From Moritella marina ATCC 15381 (GTDB lineage Bacteria > Pseudomonadota > Gammaproteobacteria > Enterobacterales > Moritellaceae): 64,000 nucleotides of DNA. The notes beneath the pieces are model-generated. The model made no database searches. It had not been told where the DNA came from and worked only from the letters and a program-made list of their open reading frames with translations. A program made the position numbers and the translations under genes. How positions within the stretch are numbered: the first letter of the stretch is position 1; each line of letters opens with the position of its first letter. The DNA lies in contig NZ_CP044399.1 of assembly GCF_008931805.1 (NCBI RefSeq), positions 1 to 64,000 on the forward strand, read 5' to 3'. Of the stretch, positions 19,932 through 46,465 are shown one piece after another.

Positions 19932-21584
19932 ATGAAACTTAAAAATATCGCGCTTTCTGCTTTAACTATTGCCATTGCAACAGGTTGCGCTACTGCAGAT
20001 CAAAAACCTCAGCACCAATGGGTACAAGATAAAGAATATAACCTGACGATCCTGCACACCAATGATAACCACGGTAATTTCTGGCAGAACAAATATGGCG
20101 AACGTGGTATGGCAGCCCGTGCGACCTTGATTAATGACATCCGTGCGGAAGTAAAGTCTGAAGGTGGCTCGGTATTATTGCTCTCTGGTGGCGATATTAA
20201 TACCGGTGTTCCGGAGTCAGATTTGCAAGACGCTGAACCTGATTTCATCGGCATGAGCATGATTGGTTACGATGCCATGACATTGGGTAATCATGAGTTT
20301 GATAACTCGCTTGATGTATTGGCTAAGCAAGCTGGTTGGGCAAATTTCCCATTCATCTCAGCTAATATTTATAAAGATGGTGAGCGTATGTTCGACGCTT
20401 ACAAGATCTTTAATAAAGACGGTATCAAGATCGCGGTTATCGGTTTAACGACGGAAGATACGGCTGAAATTGGTAATCCTGAATTTATCAGTGAATTAGA
20501 ATTCCGCGACCCGAAAGTAGAAGCGAAAAAATTAATCGCTGAATTAAAAGCAAATGAGAATCCTGATGTGATCATCGCGGCAACACACATGGGCCATTAC
20601 CTTAACGGTGATAACGGCTCTAATGCACCGGGTGATGTCCAGCTAGCACGCTACCTTAATGAAGGTGATTTAGATATGATCGTCGGCGGCCATTCACAAG
20701 AACCTGTGTGTATGGAAGGCGCAGAATACGCAAACTTCAAACCAGGCCAAAGCTGTACACCGGATGTGCAAAACGGCACTTACATTGTGCAAGCACATGA
20801 GTGGGGCAAGTACGTTGGCCGTGCTGATTACACCTTCAAAAATGGTGAATTTACACTCGCCTCGTACAACCTTATTCCGGTTAACTTAAAGAAAAAAGTT
20901 AAAAATGCTGATGGTAAAAAAGTACGTGTATTCATCCAAGACGAAATTACGCAAGATCCGGCTGTACTGGCAACGCTAAAACCGTTCCAAGAAAAAGGCC
21001 AAGACGCGTTGAATATCAAGATTGGTGATGCTAATGGTTTGCTGCAAGGTGACCGTGACGTAGTACGTAACAACCAAACTAATCTTGGCCGTTTAATTGC
21101 AACTGCCCATATGCAGCGCGCTAAAGCGGATTTCGGTATTATGAATTCAGGTGGTGTACGTGCGTCAATCGAAGCGGGTGACATTACGTATAAAGATGTA
21201 TTAACGGTACAACCGTTTGGCAATATCGTCACGTATGTTGATATGACTGGCAGTGAGGTAATGGATTACTTAAACGTTGTTGCTACTAAGCAGAAAGATT
21301 CTGGTGCATTTGCACAATTTGCTGGTATCTCGATGACAGTAGCAAACGGCCAAGTGTCTAACGTGGTTATTGCAGGTAACGCTATTGATTTAGCTAAGTC
21401 ATATCGTTTCACGATCCCATCGTTTAACGCTGCGGGTGGTGATGGTTATCCAAAAATATCAACACACTCAGCTTTTGTTAACACGGGTTATGTTGATGCT
21501 GAAGTACTGAAAGAATACATTGAAGCTAACTCACCGCTTAACGTGGCTGATTTTGAACCAAAAAATGCAATGCTTTATAAATAA
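19932..21584 (+). CDS. ushA: UshA-type 5'-nucleotidase lipoprotein, copy 1
   Basis: Hydrolyses extracellular nucleotides (and UDP-sugars in E. coli) to nucleosides and phosphate. The N terminus is a lipoprotein signal with ATGC as lipobox (Cys 19), so it is probably membrane-anchored, as in Vibrio 5'-nucleotidases. The metallophosphatase domain has LHTNDNHGNFW near residue 40, LLSGGDINTG, GNHEFDN near 118, HMGHY and GGHSQEPVC. The C-terminal nucleotide-binding domain has NLGRLIATAHMQ, MNSGGVRASIEAGDI and FNAAGGDGYP. Overall it follows E. coli UshA closely (550 residues). A second copy lies at 27299-28963. The opp terminator separates it from the operon upstream. Confidence 0.93.
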   Translation: MKLKNIALSALTIAIATGCATADQKPQHQWVQDKEYNLTILHTNDNHGNFWQNKYGERGMAARATLINDIRAEVKSEGGSVLLLSGGDINTGVPESDLQDAEPDFIGMSMIGYDAMTLGNHEFDNSLDVLAKQAGWANFPFISANIYKDGERMFDAYKIFNKDGIKIAVIGLTTEDTAEIGNPEFISELEFRDPKVEAKKLIAELKANENPDVIIAATHMGHYLNGDNGSNAPGDVQLARYLNEGDLDMIVGGHSQEPVCMEGAEYANFKPGQSCTPDVQNGTYIVQAHEWGKYVGRADYTFKNGEFTLASYNLIPVNLKKKVKNADGKKVRVFIQDEITQDPAVLATLKPFQEKGQDALNIKIGDANGLLQGDRDVVRNNQTNLGRLIATAHMQRAKADFGIMNSGGVRASIEAGDITYKDVLTVQPFGNIVTYVDMTGSEVMDYLNVVATKQKDSGAFAQFAGISMTVANGQVSNVVIAGNAIDLAKSYRFTIPSFNAAGGDGYPKISTHSAFVNTGYVDAEVLKEYIEANSPLNVADFEPKNAMLYK

Positions 21585-27298: not shown

Positions 27299-28963
27299 TT
27301 ACAGGTGAGTAATTTCACCTTTAGGTGCAAAGTCATCAACGTTAATCGGTGAGTTTGCTTGTATGTAGTCTTTTAGAACTTCGGCATCGACATAACCTGT
27401 GTTTACAAATGCAGGGTGTGCTGTGATATTTGGATAACCATCACCGCCAGCAGCGTTAAATGACGGAATAGTGAAACGGTAAGTTGCTGCTGTATCAAGC
27501 GCTTTACCTGCAATCACAACATTTGTAACCTGGTCACTTGCAACAGTCATTTGAATACCAGCAAATTGAGCATAAGCACCTGAATCACGGGTCTTAGTGC
27601 CCACTACATTCAGGTAATCCATGACTTCTGCGCCTGTCATGTCAACATAGGTGATGATATTGCCAAACGGTTGCACTGTTAATACGTCTTTATAAGAGAT
27701 ATTACCTGTTTCGATTGAGGCTCTTACACCACCAGAATTCATTATTGCAAAGTCAGCTTTAGCACGTTGCATATGCGATGTTGCAATTAAACGGCCTAGG
27801 TTTGTTTGGTTATTACGAACGATTTTACGTTCACCTTGAAGGACACCATTACTTTGACCGATCTGGATATTTAGCGCGTCTTGGCCTTTATCTTGGAAAG
27901 GTTTTAACGCATTAAATACGGCTTGGTCCTGTGCTATTTCATCTTGGATAAGTACGCGTACTTTTTTACCTTCGGCATTTTTAATTTTTGTCTTTAAGTT
28001 AACTGGAATGAGGTTGTACGATTGCAGTGTGAACTCACCATTTATAAAGGTGTAATCTGCACGGCCCACATATTTTCCCCATTCGTGTGCTTGTACAATG
28101 TCAGTACCGTTTTGCACATCGGGTGCACAGTCTTGACCTGGTTTGAAGTTTGCGTATTCAGCGCCTTCCATACACACAGGTTCTTGTGAATGACCGCCGA
28201 CGATCATATCTAAATCGCCTTCGTTAAGATAACGCGCTAACTGTACATCACCCGGTGCATTTGAACCGTTATCACCGTTTAGGTAATGGCCCATATGCGT
28301 TGCAGCAATTATTACATCTGGATTTTCAGTTGCTTTCAATTCAGCTATTAATGCTTTAGCTTCCACTTTCGGATCGCGGAATTCTAATTCGCTAATAAAT
28401 TCAGGGTTACCAATTTTGGCAGTATCTTCTGTCGTTAAACCAATAACAGCGATCTTGATACCGTCTTTGTTAAATATCTTGTAAGCATCAAACATACGCT
28501 TACCATTTTTATAGATATTTGCAGAGATGAATGGGAAGTTTGCCCAGCCTTCTTGCTTTGCTAGTACATCAAGTGTGTTATCGAATTCATGATTACCTAA
28601 TGTCATTGCATCGTAACCAATCATGTTCATACCAATAAAATCTGGTTCGGCGTCTTGCAAGTCTGATTCAGGAACTCCGGTATTTATATCACCACCAGAG
28701 AGTAGTAAGACTGAGCCTCCCTCAGCTTGGACTTCATTACGGATGTTGTTTACGAGTGTTGCACGCGCAGCCATGCCGCGTTCACCGTATTTATTTTGCC
28801 AGAAGTTACCGTGATTATCGTTGGTATGTAAAATTGTCAGGTTGTATTCTTTATCTTGGATCCAATCGTGATTGAACGCTGCACTATTAGTCTGGTTGGT
28901 ATTTGAACTGGAACAGCCTGTAGCCACTGCCAAGGCGGTTAAAGCGAGGTTTTTATAAGTCAT
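27299..28963 (-). CDS. UshA-type 5'-nucleotidase lipoprotein, copy 2
   Basis: Same family and domain order as the copy at 19932: metallophosphatase domain (LHTNDNHGNFW, GNHEFDN, GGHSQEPVC) and C-terminal nucleotide-binding domain (MNSGGVRASIETGNI, FNAAGGDGYP). The lipobox is VATGC (Cys 17). Long blocks of protein are identical to copy 1, but the DNA differs at many third codon positions, so the duplication is not recent. It is the first gene of the probable operon ushA2-porin-exeM-endonuclease. The upstream 1.07 kb (28964-30031) must hold its promoter, which I could not define. Confidence 0.92.
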   Translation of the reverse strand: MTYKNLALTALAVATGCSSSNTNQTNSAAFNHDWIQDKEYNLTILHTNDNHGNFWQNKYGERGMAARATLVNNIRNEVQAEGGSVLLLSGGDINTGVPESDLQDAEPDFIGMNMIGYDAMTLGNHEFDNTLDVLAKQEGWANFPFISANIYKNGKRMFDAYKIFNKDGIKIAVIGLTTEDTAKIGNPEFISELEFRDPKVEAKALIAELKATENPDVIIAATHMGHYLNGDNGSNAPGDVQLARYLNEGDLDMIVGGHSQEPVCMEGAEYANFKPGQDCAPDVQNGTDIVQAHEWGKYVGRADYTFINGEFTLQSYNLIPVNLKTKIKNAEGKKVRVLIQDEIAQDQAVFNALKPFQDKGQDALNIQIGQSNGVLQGERKIVRNNQTNLGRLIATSHMQRAKADFAIMNSGGVRASIETGNISYKDVLTVQPFGNIITYVDMTGAEVMDYLNVVGTKTRDSGAYAQFAGIQMTVASDQVTNVVIAGKALDTAATYRFTIPSFNAAGGDGYPNITAHPAFVNTGYVDAEVLKDYIQANSPINVDDFAPKGEITHL

Positions 28964-40173: not shown

Positions 40174-40486
40174 TAACTTATTCCTTATTTTCTATGCGTT
40201 ATTGTGTACTTGATGTGACTAACTCACTGTTTATTAAAATATAACACGGCATGATGATGTTTTTAATCGTTTATATTTTTCATCTAAGGCGTGAAGTTCC
40301 ATTGAAATTGAAAAAAGACGGTTATCTAGTATTTTTACGAGTTACCCAGTATTAGTTTTACTAATACAATGTTCACAAGCAAGGCAAGGTACACGTGCTA
40401 TGACTAAGAGTTTCAATGACGCTTGTAGATAGCGACAGCGTAACAACTTGTTTTAATCTTCGACTTTATCAATATTGGAATTTTTT

Positions 40487-41458
40487 ATGAAAAAACTAAA
40501 TAAAGCATTGTCTCTTACATTAGCTGCAATCGTATCTATGCCAACACTTGCTGAAAATATTAATACCGATGATTTTTCTTTTGGTGGTCGTGTTGAAGCA
40601 AGAGCTGGACTGACTGATAGTGATTTTGATGACAAGTCTCGTGTACGTTTAAACGGCCAAGGCAAGCATGTTATTAATGACGATATAACAGCGGTTGGTA
40701 AATTTGAATATGAGCTAACGCAAGAAGATAACTCATCAGATACAACTGTACAAAATAAAACACGTTATTTATACGTTGGTGCTGAGACTGCATTCGGTAC
40801 AGTGACATATGGTACGCAAGATAACGCTGTTACTTACCTAACAAACTTCACTGATATGGCTGAATACTTCAGTGGTTACACTAATGAAAGTATCACTGCA
40901 AGTGGCGACAGAGCTGAAGACACAGTGCTTTATGCTATCAATAAAGGTGACTTAACTGTTCATGCATCGGCTAATCTAAAAGAGACCGAAAATGGCGGTG
41001 GCTTGATGGTTGCTTATAAAGTACATCAAAACATTGAAATCAGTGCGGGTTATGCAGCAACTGAAGGTTTTACTGAAAATAACAGCGACACATTCTTAGA
41101 TGAGACTGAATCATCAGACGTTTACATGATCGGTGCACGTTATACGAAAGATGGCTTGTTAGTGTCTGGTCTTGTGCAAGCGGGTAGCTATGGCGGTTCA
41201 GATTTCGATGCTGTTGACGCATTCGCTGCTTACTCATTTGGTGAAAACAGTGTAAACGTTTCATATAACTACTATAGTGCGGATGATACAAACGAGTTAG
41301 ACGTAAACTTTGTAGCGTTTGAATATGCACGTTATATCGGTGATGTTGCTGCATACGCGAGTTATAAAATTGCTTTAGATGATGATACATCAGCTGGTAG
41401 CGGTCCTAACAATAAGAATGCAGATGAATTCATTATCGGCGCTCGTTATTCTTTCTAA
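40487..41458 (+). CDS. Outer-membrane porin, paralogue 1
   Basis: General porin of 323 residues. Signal peptide MKKLNKALSLTLAAIVSMPT, cleavage after LA. The mature start ENINTDDFSFGGRVEARAGL, alternating beta-strand pattern, YGTQDNAVTYLTNFTDMAEY constriction-loop-like segment and the final FIIGARYSF support a trimeric gram-negative porin. I start at 40487 rather than the in-frame ATG at 40475, because the ribosome site GGAA and signal peptide fit. It closely resembles the porin at 42338. Confidence 0.88.
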   Translation: MKKLNKALSLTLAAIVSMPTLAENINTDDFSFGGRVEARAGLTDSDFDDKSRVRLNGQGKHVINDDITAVGKFEYELTQEDNSSDTTVQNKTRYLYVGAETAFGTVTYGTQDNAVTYLTNFTDMAEYFSGYTNESITASGDRAEDTVLYAINKGDLTVHASANLKETENGGGLMVAYKVHQNIEISAGYAATEGFTENNSDTFLDETESSDVYMIGARYTKDGLLVSGLVQAGSYGGSDFDAVDAFAAYSFGENSVNVSYNYYSADDTNELDVNFVAFEYARYIGDVAAYASYKIALDDDTSAGSGPNNKNADEFIIGARYSF

Positions 41459-42337: not shown

Positions 42338-43285
42338 ATGAAAAACATAAATAAAGCATTATCTCTGACATTAGCAGCAATCGTATCTATGCCAACACTG
42401 GCTGAAAGCATCAACACTGATGACTTCTCTTTTGGTGGTCGTATCGAAGCAAGAGGCTCACTTACGGATAGTGATTTCAATGATAAATCACGTGTACGTA
42501 TTAATGGTCAAGGTAAGCATGAGATTAATGAAGCTTTAACTGCTGTTGGTAAATTCGAGTATGAATTAACGCAAGAAGATAATAGTTCTGACACAACAGT
42601 TAAAAATAACCTTCGTTATGCATACGTTGGTGTTGAAACTGCGCACGGTACTTTGACATACGGTACGCAAGATAACGCTGTTACTTATCTTACTAACTTC
42701 ACCGATGTTGCTGAAGTTTACAGTGGTTACACAAACGAAGAGTTTTCTGCAAGCGGTGACCGTTCTGAAGATACTGTGCTTTATAGTGTGGTTAAAGGTG
42801 ATTTAACATTCAACGCATCAGCTAATCTACAAGAAAATGAAAAAGGCGGCGGTTTGATGGCTGCTTATAAATTGCTACCAAGCGTTGAAGTAAGTGCGGG
42901 TTATGCAGCAACAGAAACTGCTGTGGGTGAAACTGATTCATCTGATGTTTATATGCTTGGTGCTCGTTATACTAACGGCGGTGTTTTAGTTTCAGGTCTA
43001 GTACAAAAAGGTGCTGCAGACGGTACTGATTTTGACGCAGTTGACGCATTCGCATCTTATGGCTTTGGCGAAAACAAAGTAAGTGTTTCATATAACTACC
43101 TACAATTTGATGGCGACGATATGGCTCAAGATGTTAACTTTGTGGCATTTGAATATGGCCGTTATATTGGTGACGTAGCTGCATACGCCGGCTATAAAGT
43201 TGCATTAGGCTCTGATATGTCAGCTGGTAAAGGCAATAACAACAACGCAGACGAATTCATCGTTGGTGCTCGTTACTCTTTCTAA
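42338..43285 (+). CDS. Outer-membrane porin, paralogue 2
   Basis: General porin of 315 residues. Signal MKNINKALSLTLAAIVSMPT, cleavage after LA. Large parts are the same as the porin at 40487, for example TAVGKFEYELTQEDNSSDTT and YGTQDNAVTYLTNFTD, while a surface loop near residue 200 is shorter (about 8 residues fewer). It ends FIVGARYSF. The pair comes from an old tandem duplication, as the intervening 880 bp are unrelated. A terminator follows at 43419. Confidence 0.88.
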   Translation: MKNINKALSLTLAAIVSMPTLAESINTDDFSFGGRIEARGSLTDSDFNDKSRVRINGQGKHEINEALTAVGKFEYELTQEDNSSDTTVKNNLRYAYVGVETAHGTLTYGTQDNAVTYLTNFTDVAEVYSGYTNEEFSASGDRSEDTVLYSVVKGDLTFNASANLQENEKGGGLMAAYKLLPSVEVSAGYAATETAVGETDSSDVYMLGARYTNGGVLVSGLVQKGAADGTDFDAVDAFASYGFGENKVSVSYNYLQFDGDDMAQDVNFVAFEYGRYIGDVAAYAGYKVALGSDMSAGKGNNNNADEFIVGARYSF

Positions 43286-43455: not shown

Positions 43456-44136
43456 TTAAAACTCGCTATCTTCCAGTCGTCTATCTCGAACATATTCTGC
43501 GTAATAAAGGGACATCACAATATGTGTTTTTTCGATTGCAGATGAACCTTGGGTACCTGTTAGTTTTATCGTTTTGTGAGGTTTGCATTTTTCCACATAG
43601 GATTGCAGTGACTTAGCTCTAGTGCGCTTTCCGCTTTTAACTTCTACAGGAACGATCCTGCCCACTTCATCGGTGAAGATAAATTCAATTTCAGCTCTTG
43701 CGTCACCCCAAGAAAAACTAGGCTCGATACCGCAAGCTGCAAACTCTTGTTGAACAACATTTTCTGCAATATAACCCTTGTACTCGTAACCTTGTAGTTT
43801 AATTTCCCTGTAGCTTGTCCCTAGCATATGGTTCAGCAACCCAGTATCAAAGAAAAATAGTTTAACGGTATTGTCTTTTTGATAAGCAGCAAGTGGTGAT
43901 CTAGGTTGACCTTCAACTGGGAAGTTCTTTAATGCTAAGCGGCATTTGTGAAGCCATGTGATAGCTGTTTCAAACTCTGTATATCTAGATTTTCGTTCAT
44001 GCACGCCTTTGAATTTGAAACGTTTGACAGAACCATCAAATACAGATGAAAGTTGAGAAGGAATGTCCCTAAAGACGGATAGTGACGTGTAGGGAGGTAA
44101 TAAGGCTGAGTGACGAAAATACTCTAAGATAAAGCT
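43456..44136 (-). pseudogene. 5'-truncated AAA ATPase / DUF4143 fragment
   Basis: Reading on the minus strand, the frame is open from 44136, just after an in-frame TGA, to the stop at 43456. It encodes only the C-terminal half of a DUF4143-type ATPase: SVFRDIPSQLSSVFDGSVKR, ERKSRYTEFETAITWLHKC, VKLFFFDTGLLNHMLGTSYR, YIAENVVQQEF and EVKSGKRTRAKS (restriction-endonuclease-like segment). Full-length relatives are roughly 400-480 residues and start with a P-loop ATPase domain; none is present here. A GTG at 44004 could start a 182-residue product, but no good ribosome site is seen. It reads as a decayed remnant. Confidence 0.8.
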
Positions 44137-44200
44137 TCATGCGACTAGCTGAAGGGGCCGTCCATGGTTTGTAAGGCATGGACTCATTTTACGCGCTAAC

Positions 44201-44509
44201 CTACATCCAATAAGTACGTTGCTCTGGCATAAAGTCGCTGGTATCAGACATGTTTTTCATTTCGCCATTTTGTTCTTCTGTCTCTGGCACTTCTAATTTT
44301 TCGCCCTGGGCATTAACGACATCGCTCGCGTTTATTTGTGGCTTATCCAAGTCATCAACGCTAATTGATTGATCTGCTGTGACATCTTCAACGCTGGCAG
44401 GGGCGAAAGATTGGATATTACTTGTTGGTTGGTTCATTGGTAAGTTTGAGTTTGTGCTGCAACCTTGATTCAATAAACAAAGCAGTATAATTATTTTTAA
44501 TTTATTCAT
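44201..44509 (-). CDS. Small lipoprotein with acidic tail, unknown function
   Basis: Protein of 102 residues starting MNKLKIIILLCLLNQGCS; the lipobox is NQGC (Cys 17). The mature part is acidic and Ser/Asn rich (VEDVTADQSISVDDLDKP) and ends RTYWM. The ATG at 44509 follows GGGGTG; the GTG at 44515 is an alternative. The N terminus resembles the two lipoproteins at 44548 and 45001, but the rest does not. No known family recognised. Confidence 0.65.
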   Translation of the reverse strand: MNKLKIIILLCLLNQGCSTNSNLPMNQPTSNIQSFAPASVEDVTADQSISVDDLDKPQINASDVVNAQGEKLEVPETEEQNGEMKNMSDTSDFMPEQRTYWM

Positions 44510-44547
44510 GAACACCCCATACAGGTATGGTTATATATTTATTAAAA

Positions 44548-44742
44548 CTATTCGACCTGAGTTTTCAGCACAGCCATAACAGCCATGAACTCACCAATGG
44601 CGAGTAAACCATTCTTTTCTGGTTTTTTTTCTTCTGCTTTATTACCGATTTTAGCCAAAGCACCGTCTTTATCGCTACCAGTTCCGTTACTGCAAGCTTG
44701 AAGTGATAGACAAAGAAACATCGTTAAAACTAATTTACTCAT
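44548..44742 (-). CDS. Small lipoprotein of a paired family, member 1
   Basis: A 64-residue lipoprotein: MSKLVLTMFLCLSLQACSN with lipobox LQAC (Cys 17), a charged Lys/Glu linker, then a conserved C-terminal block NGLLAIGEFMAVMAVLKTQV. The same block recurs in the gene at 45001. The ATG at 44742 has GGAG at good spacing; the GTG at 44748 is less likely. The function is unknown. The two-ended conservation (signal and C-terminal helix) suggests that the tail is the functional part. Confidence 0.7.
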   Translation of the reverse strand: MSKLVLTMFLCLSLQACSNGTGSDKDGALAKIGNKAEEKKPEKNGLLAIGEFMAVMAVLKTQVE

Positions 44743-44804
44743 AACCACTCCATTTATTTACGCTTTAAAAACAAGGTTTTATCAGTTTTTGTTGCATTTT
44801 AGAT

Positions 44805-44847
44805 AAAGAAAAGCCCATTGAATCAAACCATTCAATGGGCTGCGACA
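44805..44847 (-). terminator. Terminator of the lipoprotein at 45001 (duplicate of the ssrA terminator)
   Basis: AGCCCATTGAAT and ATTCAATGGGCT form an exact 12-bp stem. On the minus strand it is followed by TTTTCTTT. The 43 bp are identical to 45293-45335. Confidence 0.85.
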
Positions 44848-45000
44848 TTAATTCGTTGCAGATTCATTAGGTTAAGCTGATTTTTTGGTTTATTAAAATA
44901 TCCAGGAGCGCATTTTAGTACTTATCCCATACCAAATCAATTCTACAGTATGCTTTTCTTTTTCATTAGCGAGACTCTAGGTCTTATACTTTGTATTGTG

Positions 45001-45219
45001 TTATGACTGCACTTGAGTTTTTAATAGTGCCATTACCGCCATAAATTGTGTAATGGCAAGAAGACCATTCTTCTTTTTATCTTCTTTAGTTTTATTCTCT
45101 GGCACTGTTAGTTTATTTGTCGTTGATGTGTCGCCAATACCTATCGCGAGATTAATGCCGAGGTTACTACAGGCTTGAAGTGACAGAGAAAGGCAGATTA
45201 TAAGGACTATTTTGTTCAT
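45001..45219 (-). CDS. Small lipoprotein of a paired family, member 2
   Basis: A 72-residue lipoprotein starting MNKIVLIICLSLSLQACSN (lipobox LQAC, Cys 17). A variable Thr/Lys/Asn-rich middle is followed by the shared block NGLLAITQFMAVMALLKTQV. It is a clear paralogue of the gene at 44548. The ATG at 45219 has only a weak ribosome site; the TTG at 45225 is possible. It is flanked on both sides by the 43-bp terminator repeat. Confidence 0.68.
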   Translation of the reverse strand: MNKIVLIICLSLSLQACSNLGINLAIGIGDTSTTNKLTVPENKTKEDKKKNGLLAITQFMAVMALLKTQVQS

Positions 45220-45292
45220 TTTCAAATCTTACTTTATTGTTTAATTACAGGCGCTTACAAACGCTTACAATTTAATTTGTTGAATTTTAGGC

Positions 45293-45335
45293 AAAGAAAA
45301 GCCCATTGAATCAAACCATTCAATGGGCTGCGACA
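45293..45335 (-). terminator. Terminator of ssrA
   Basis: Exact 12-bp stem AGCCCATTGAAT/ATTCAATGGGCT with a 6-base loop, 30-65 bp beyond the ssrA 3' end. On the minus strand a TTTTCTTT tail follows. An identical 43-bp copy lies at 44805-44847. Confidence 0.88.
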
Positions 45336-45364
45336 CTTAGGAGGGTGCCGTTCTAACTTGCGTT

Positions 45365-45723
45365 TGGTGGAGTCGGGGGGAGTTGAACCCCCGTCCGAAA
45401 AACCTACATCCGCGGTACTACATGTTTAGTCATCTCTATTAATTTAACTTTATGCGAAGCCGAGTGACAGGCCGAACAAAAGCGTGCTCGATTGGTTTTA
45501 GCACTTTCTCTACGAGCGAAGAGTCCATGCGATCCTGATATTTAATGACCATACAATATTAGAGACCCTCAGGCAGGGTTCTAAATGATGGCTAGCAAGC
45601 CTAAGCTGCTAGAGAGTAGTTAGAGTCGTTTGCAACTATAACAGTGCGGCTTTTTACGAGGCCAACCGCCCCTCGACATGCACCTAGGGTTTCGTGAATC
45701 TCGTCGAATCCTAAATCGACCCC
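45365..45723 (-). ncRNA. ssrA: Transfer-messenger RNA (tmRNA)
   Basis: tmRNA rescues stalled ribosomes together with SmpB and tags the incomplete peptide for proteolysis. On the minus strand it begins GGGGTCGATTTAGGATTCGA and ends with CGACTCCACCA. The 5' GGGGTCG pairs with the 3' CGACTCC to form the tRNA-like acceptor stem, with CCA encoded. The T-arm GGGGGTTCAACTCCCCC precedes it. The tag reading frame at 45602-45634 encodes ANDSNYSLAA followed by TAG, with resume codon GCA; E. coli has ANDENYALAA. The gene is 359 nt long. smpB lies immediately upstream, as in many relatives. Confidence 0.97.
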
Positions 45724-45732
45724 AGAACTAAA

Positions 45733-45760
45733 ATTCTACGCCAATAGTGTAGAATTGCAA
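45733..45760 (-). promoter_or_regulatory. Putative sigma-70 promoter of ssrA with overlapping inverted repeat
   Basis: On the minus strand TTGCAA (-35) and TAGAAT (-10) are separated by 16 bp, and nine bases lie between the -10 and the mature 5' end. An 8-bp inverted repeat (AATTCTAC / GTAGAATT) overlaps the promoter. Confidence 0.6.
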
Positions 45761-45764
45761 CAAA

Positions 45765-46244
45765 TTAACGAACTTTATGCTTCATCATTCGTTCTTTGTC
45801 TATTTTCCATTCACGATCTTTCACATCTGAACGTTTATCGTGCTCTTTTTTACCTTTTGCAAGGCCAATATTGATTTTCACCCATGCCTGTTTCCAGTAC
45901 ATAGATGTCGCCACGATAGTATAACCTTGACGCTCAACTTTACTTGCTAGCACTTCTAATTCGCGCTTGTTTAATAACAGCTTACGAATACGTGTTGGGT
46001 TACATACTACGTGCGTTGATGCTGCGTCGAGTGGCATGATCTGCGCACCAGACATAAATGCTTCACCGTTTTTAATAAACACATAACTTTCAGTAATGTT
46101 TACTTTACCAGCACGTAATGATTTAACTTCCCAACCTTGAAGTTCTAATCCAGCTTCTAAGCGGTCTTCGATTTTATATTCGAAACTAGCGGTCTTATTT
46201 CGCGCTATCGTGTTTTCGCTATTTTTTGGTTTTTTCTTAGCCAT
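45765..46244 (-). CDS. smpB: tmRNA-binding protein SmpB
   Basis: SmpB binds tmRNA and occupies the decoding site during trans-translation. The 159-residue protein has the OB-fold pattern: [38 protein letters not shown] near the N terminus, then [31 protein letters not shown] and [12 protein letters not shown]. The basic C-terminal tail ([18 protein letters not shown]) reads the empty mRNA channel. It is transcribed toward ssrA and ends 41 bp before it. Confidence 0.96.
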
Positions 46245-46465
46245 AATTTATCTTTATGCACCCATCATTGACGGAATTTAATGTTATAAATATTATAACA
46301 AAATCGCATTTTATCCTAGTACTTGTCTTGCTTTGCGCGGAATAACAAATGAATTTTAGTGAGATAAATGCTAAAGTTGCCTGCTTATTACTAACGGCCG
46401 CGAGATATTGAGCCTTTAGTAAACGATTTGATTTTTAGATTATAGTTTTGAAGATAGGGGCACGT

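What the first reader, a model, noticed from the sequence alone, without database searches (positions are those of the whole stretch)
44548..45335. Paired small lipoproteins bracketed by a duplicated ssrA terminator
Two lipoproteins share the signal and a C-terminal NGLLAI..FMAVMA.LKTQV block but differ in the middle. The 43-bp terminator after ssrA is repeated exactly after the lipoprotein at 45001, so direct repeats flank a 445-bp segment holding that gene. The segment could have arisen by insertion or duplication at the ssrA flank, a well-known integration hotspot, and could be lost by recombination.
Basis: partly seen in the sequence, partly recalled or inferred. Interest (0 to 1): 0.5.

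Follow-up and report, generated by a model that had tools for sequence, protein, structure and literature searches.

The report
Prophage-end lipoproteins beside tmRNA gene
The small lipoprotein genes next to the tmRNA gene in this marine bacterium look like leftover end pieces of filamentous prophages that keep inserting at that spot; the extra lipoprotein and second terminator are most likely a stacked second end piece and not a recent local duplication.

Summary
An exact 43-bp terminator repeat (45293-45335, 44805-44847) brackets a 445-bp segment with one of two related lipoprotein genes, and that hairpin occurs only twice in the 4.76-Mb genome. The genome belongs to Moritella (inferred). 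In all 11 Moritella genomes searched, ssrA is followed by this terminator (T) and lipoprotein genes: LPA (FMAVM..LKTQV family; intact in 9 of 11, truncated in 1, absent in 1) and LPB (11 of 11, window 44201-44509). The source is probably prophages. In two genomes LPB is the left (attL) end of an ssrA-integrated filamentous prophage (inovirus), a third shows tandem remnants of them, and a metagenomic inovirus contig carries the same LPB and flank. The window's own DNA just past LPB keeps short colinear traces of that phage arm. LPA' (45001-45219) is not a recent copy of LPA (AU p = 0.0004). Best reading: T-LPA-LPB is the left-end module of ssrA-specific prophages, and the window carries two stacked, decayed modules. 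Function, possibly superinfection exclusion, is inferred only. Weak points: no recognisable phage DNA in the 153-bp scar, and the second T lacks the attachment core.

The parts
45365..45723 (-). ssrA (tmRNA), tag ANDSNYSLAA; its last 23 bases (45365-45387) are the attachment core used by prophages in related genomes
45293..45335 (-). T1, intrinsic terminator 30 bases after ssrA, copy 1 of the 43-bp repeat
45001..45219 (-). LPA', 72-aa lipoprotein of the FMAVM..LKTQV family (extra copy)
44848..45000 (.). 153-bp stretch after LPA' with no significant match in the genus or in the phage arms; contains a promoter-like site 44940-44912 (-)
44805..44847 (-). T2, exact second copy of the 43-bp terminator, not preceded by the ssrA core
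44548..44742 (-). LPA, 64-aa lipoprotein, same family; closest to the single copy of G006 (89% DNA)
44201..44509 (-). LPB, 102-aa predicted lipoprotein (C-terminal MSDTSDFMPEQRTYWM), gene found at the left end of ssrA-integrated inovirus prophages
44075..44197 (-). traces of the prophage left arm in colinear order: 44159-44197 (97% to G006 phage), 44102-44150 (78%), 44075-44109 (83%, inside the Zot-like gene region of L173)
   Evidence: 0 of 100 shuffles gave any match

Best explanation
In Moritella, filamentous prophages integrate at the 3' end of ssrA. Their left end carries, after the attachment core that rebuilds the tmRNA gene, a copy of the tmRNA terminator (T) and one or two small lipoprotein genes (LPA, LPB). 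Each integration stacks a new T-LPA-LPB module between ssrA and the older ones; the phage body then decays and the lipoprotein genes remain under purifying selection. The window shows ssrA-T-LPA' (a newer or foreign module cut down to T and LPA'), a scar, then an older T-LPA-LPB module with traces of its phage arm. Shown: the repeat, the family, its position, the prophages with LPB at the left end, the traces in the window, and that LPA' is not a recent copy of LPA. Inferred: that LPA' itself came with a prophage, that the scar is a deletion junction, and that the lipoproteins act at the outer membrane of the lysogen, most likely as superinfection-exclusion or other lysogenic-conversion proteins.
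For: ssrA is followed by T and LP genes in 11 of 11 genus genomes (in G005 and G006 the contig ends just after or inside T, and the LP genes follow the second core copy). G007 has a 17.4-kb element between two cores: T-LPB, then Endonuclease I-like, Zot-like, coat-like, phage replication protein A-like and tyrosine integrase genes, then core-T-LPB. G006 has the same phage type (integrase 96%) with LPB at the far left contig end and core-T-LPA-LPB at the right. G005 has three cores and LPB fragments at two contig ends, fitting a tandem array. An IMG/VR contig (L173) carries LPB at 1-309, the same flank, and inovirus genes. Phage remnants lie beyond LPB in G002, G003, G008, G009 and the window, and beside the second LPB in G004; the shuffle control was run for the window stretch only. 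LPA' and LPA are not sisters, AU p = 0.0004. dN is well under dS for LPB pairs and for the close LPA pairs.
Against: T2 is the only T copy seen without an ssrA core before it, and no core remnant is detectable there. The scar matches no phage arm. No prophage carrying an intact LPA on its own left end was seen, because the assemblies of G005 and G006 break inside that repeat. G001 and G010 show no convincing phage DNA in 1500 bp past LPB. LPB was found in only one viral contig and LPA in none. Of the integrase relatives found in other genera, the six loci fetched hold no tmRNA gene and no LPA or LPB match. The modules could therefore be host genes captured by phages.
Confidence: 0.6

Rival explanations
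1. Host-gene capture: LPA and LPB are ordinary chromosomal Moritella genes downstream of ssrA, and phages integrating at ssrA picked up this flank by aberrant excision and now carry copies.
For: Genus-restricted: outside the genus 0 of 383 genomes match through the end of the LPA profile, and 1 of 383 gives a marginal LPB match. T in the phage modules is the host terminator. A non-inovirus phage contig of G005 (C52) also has LPB at its end, as if the flank, not the phage, were the common element.
Against: Several different prophages and a metagenomic inovirus all have LPB at the same place followed by the same ~390-bp flank, which fits a stable phage arm better than repeated accidents.
Confidence: 0.3
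2. Old tandem duplication of T-LPA within the chromosome, before the split of the window's species from G006, followed by divergence of LPA' and loss in G006.
For: A clade of LPA', LPA and G006 LPA is not rejected (p = 0.22); T copies are exact and could mediate loss.
Against: LPA' groups, without significant support (68/74), with G001/G004 LPA. Other extra lipoprotein copies in the genus lie at prophage or island ends.
Confidence: 0.25
3. LPA and LPB help the phage and not the lysogen's immunity, for example as pilotin-like lipoproteins for the host secretin through which filamentous phages leave.
For: Small lipoproteins on inovirus ends; no secretin was noticed among the element's ORFs (by eye; not searched with profiles); a non-significant profile match to the pilotin OutS, E = 0.25.
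Against: The match is weak and includes the signal peptide; the LP genes persist after the phage has decayed.
Confidence: 0.1

Closest known systems
Pf-tmRNA prophages of Pseudomonas aeruginosa (filamentous phages integrated at the tmRNA 3' end; PMC7549136, passages read)
   Same: Filamentous phage, tyrosine integrase, attachment core in the last ~28 bases of the tmRNA gene
   Different: The main text has 0 occurrences of 'lipoprotein' and of 'tandem'; the Moritella elements carry a terminator and lipoprotein genes at the left end and stack in tandem
Prophage superinfection-exclusion lipoproteins such as Ltp of Streptococcus thermophilus phage TP-J34 (PMC3952083, abstract read)
   Same: Small lipoprotein gene carried by a prophage, expected on the cell surface or envelope
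   Different: No significant family match of LPA or LPB in PHROGs, Pfam or PADLOC; Gram-negative host; activity untested
OsmB (NCBIfam PRK10540)
   Same: Weak match over the signal-peptide half only (E 0.003-0.015)
   Different: 15-17 bits against a cut-off of 98; the C-terminal block is outside the match

Membership tests
ssrA-integrated inovirus prophage (related elements G007, G006) | Integration at the tmRNA 3' end with a duplicated core | tested here: met
   G007 and G006 each have two cores, G005 three
ssrA-integrated inovirus prophage (related elements G007, G006) | Tyrosine integrase, Zot-like assembly ATPase, replication protein, small coat-like protein | tested here: met
   for G007; integrase, Zot-like and replication genes in G006 (coat not tested there)
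ssrA-integrated inovirus prophage (the window itself) | Phage genes and second core present at the locus | tested here: not met
   One core only and no integrase, Zot-like or replication gene match; only short arm traces. A remnant at most
Recent tandem duplication | The two gene copies are each other's closest relatives | tested here: not met
   AU p = 0.0004; LPA 89% to G006, 57% to LPA'
Lipoprotein (Sec signal plus lipobox) | N-terminal signal with Cys at the lipobox, not Asp at +2 | tested here: met
   By inspection: LQAC/LQGC for LPA; LPB has the weaker NQGC. The lipobox and +2 rules are recalled; no predictor was run
Superinfection-exclusion lipoproteins (Ltp type) | Blocks infection by related phage | not testable with these tools
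   No experiment possible
Superinfection-exclusion lipoproteins (Ltp type) | Sequence similarity to a known family | tested here: not met

The most novel reading that the evidence does not exclude
A genus-wide arms-race locus: every ssrA phage brings its own variant lipoprotein module with a spare tmRNA terminator, so the stack of T-LP modules beside ssrA is a fossil record of past lysogenies and a growing set of envelope exclusion proteins, kept by selection and trimmed by recombination between the identical terminators.
Probability: 0.25. Interest if true: 0.65.

Novelty: new variant of a known kind. Interest (0 to 1): 0.42.

Why it matters
It turns an apparent duplication into a readable prophage record: elements that insert into tmRNA must restore its 3' end, and here they also bring its terminator and lipoprotein genes. 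If the lipoproteins act in exclusion, Moritella would be a natural series of retained phage-exclusion genes at a single site.

Tried and rejected
Rejected: repeat by chance; recent in-genome duplication; OsmB, DUF7292 or a defence family for the lipoproteins; an Rfam RNA other than tmRNA in 44000-46300; a phage or plasmid record holding the segment (one 32-base match at E 0.07, and none); T, the core-T junction or a scar 26-mer in viral contigs (none); an ssrA-core remnant before T2 (in each of six comparisons 250 or more of 500 shuffles score as high).

Led nowhere: the structure prediction of LPA' gave mean pLDDT 58.6, only a signal helix and a C-terminal helix 51-70, so no fold search was run. 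The first scan of named genome contigs with LPA' alone found nothing. Paper searches for this locus in Moritella listed nothing about it by title or abstract start; only the library of those searches is meant.

Full report
What is in the window. On the minus strand the order is ssrA (45723-45365), terminator T1 (45335-45293), LPA' (45219-45001), a 153-bp stretch, T2 (44847-44805, an exact 43-bp copy of T1), LPA (44742-44548), LPB (44509-44201), then a DUF4143 gene fragment and two porin genes. The T hairpin occurs twice in the genome, both here. LPA' and LPA share the signal and a conserved C-terminal block; 17 of 73 alignment columns are invariant across 10 family members, 12 of them from K50 on.

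Taxon. The window is therefore taken as Moritella (inference).

Distribution. All 11 genus genomes have one full-length ssrA. An LPA gene lies beside ssrA or beside an ssrA core copy in 10 of 11: intact in G000 (two copies), G001-G004, G006 and G008-G010, truncated in G005, absent in G007. LPB is in 11 of 11, with extra copies or fragments in G004, G005, G006 and G007. In 394 order genomes (11 of the genus, 383 others) the LPA profile hit 38: the 11, plus 27 others whose matches are dominated by the signal half and none of which reaches the last nine positions. LPB hit 12: the 11, plus one marginal match inside a long frame. No LPA relative was found in viral contigs.

The prophages. In G007 two cores lie 17.4 kb apart. 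Between them come T, LPB, an Endonuclease I-like gene, a Zot-like ATPase, coat-like genes, a phage replication protein A-like gene and a tyrosine integrase, then core-T-LPB again; the flank repeat is 866 bp at 97%. Beyond it lie further Zot-like and LPB fragments, fitting older stacked copies. G006 has the same phage type (integrase 96%), with LPB cut by the contig end on the left and core-T-LPA-LPB on the right. G005 has three cores on three contigs, integrase genes next to two of them, and two contigs that begin inside LPB; one of these (C52) carries other phage genes. G004 has two LPB copies about 8 kb apart, with DNA similar to C52 just after the first. An IMG/VR contig, L173, starts with LPB (79% identical in its best segment), followed by the same ~390-bp flank and inovirus genes. 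It starts exactly at the LPB start codon, so nothing upstream is known.

Remnants. In the 1500 bp after LPB, phage-arm or integrase sequence was found in G000, G002, G003, G005 (right copy), G008, G009 and beside the second LPB of G004. None was found in G010 or in the right copy of G006. In G001 and beside the first LPB of G004 I found only two short matches each that I do not count; one of each pair is to the T hairpin. With the prophages of G006 and G007 this makes 9 of 11 genomes. For the window the traces are 39 bp at 97%, 49 bp at 78% and 35-36 bp at 83%, in phage order; 0 of 100 dinucleotide shuffles of that window stretch gave any match. The other genomes had no shuffle control.

Origin of the extra copy. 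LPA is 89% identical in DNA to the single copy of G006, the nearest species (smpB-ssrA region 97.2%), but 57% identical to LPA'. Holding LPA' and LPA together is rejected (p = 0.0004); holding LPA', LPA and G006 LPA together is not (p = 0.22); the grouping of LPA' with G001 and G004 is unsupported (68/74). So the extra copy is either imported or older than the split from G006. G006 might still hold an LPA' in its unassembled left arm.

Mechanism. Established knowledge: elements that insert in the tmRNA 3' end must restore it. Here the restored piece extends over the terminator and into lipoprotein genes, so each insertion leaves ssrA intact, terminated and followed by a fresh LP module. T copies in the other genomes all follow a core; the window's T2 does not, and no core remnant is visible. 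I read the 153-bp scar plus T2 as the junction of a deletion that removed a phage body and its core; this is inference and the weakest link. Two mature lipoproteins with non-Asp residues after the Cys should go to the outer membrane (rule recalled). Purifying selection is indicated by dN well below dS (for example LPB G000 against G007 0.10/0.86; LPA G000 against G006 0.08/0.27).

Function. Lysogen-expressed lipoproteins that exclude other phages are known (Ltp, PMC3952083, abstract), and filamentous prophages in tmRNA are known (Pf-tmRNA, PMC7549136, passages). No sequence family ties LPA or LPB to exclusion. I hold superinfection exclusion as the likeliest single function at about 0.35; pilotin-like help for phage export is a rival at about 0.1.

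Verdict. The thing is a stack of degraded prophage-end modules, a new variant of a known kind of site.

Noticed in passing
window 44940-44905, minus strand: Promoter-like TTGATT-17-TAAAAT in the scar pointing at T2; a ~100-nt transcript ending at T2 is conceivable. The region has no more such sites than shuffles (4 found, 4.8 expected).
   Followed up: partly
L037 and L040 (G001, G004), just after LPB: A second terminator-like hairpin with the same 12-bp stem AGCCCATTGAAT but another loop follows LPB, so T-like hairpins bracket LPA-LPB there.
   Followed up: no
L168 (G005 contig C52) and L040: A phage unlike the inoviruses (endolysin-like and unknown PHROGs) also has LPB at its end; 600 bp of it match G004 at 82% just after LPB.
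   Followed up: partly
L045:14887-15741: The ssrA element of G007 encodes a protein that looks like a sigma-70-family factor (by eye).
   Followed up: no
L167:211-4734 (G004): Between the two LPB copies lies a gene set that looks like UbiA-type prenyltransferase, GtrA-like, FAD oxidase and short-chain dehydrogenase genes (by eye).
   Followed up: no
window 40475-41458 and 42338-43285: Two similar porin genes in tandem next to the locus.
   Followed up: no
window 19932-21584 and 27299-28963: Two very similar 5'-nucleotidase-like genes in opposite orientation.
   Followed up: no
window 43456-44004: C-terminal fragment of a DUF4143 protein between LPB and the porins.
   Followed up: no
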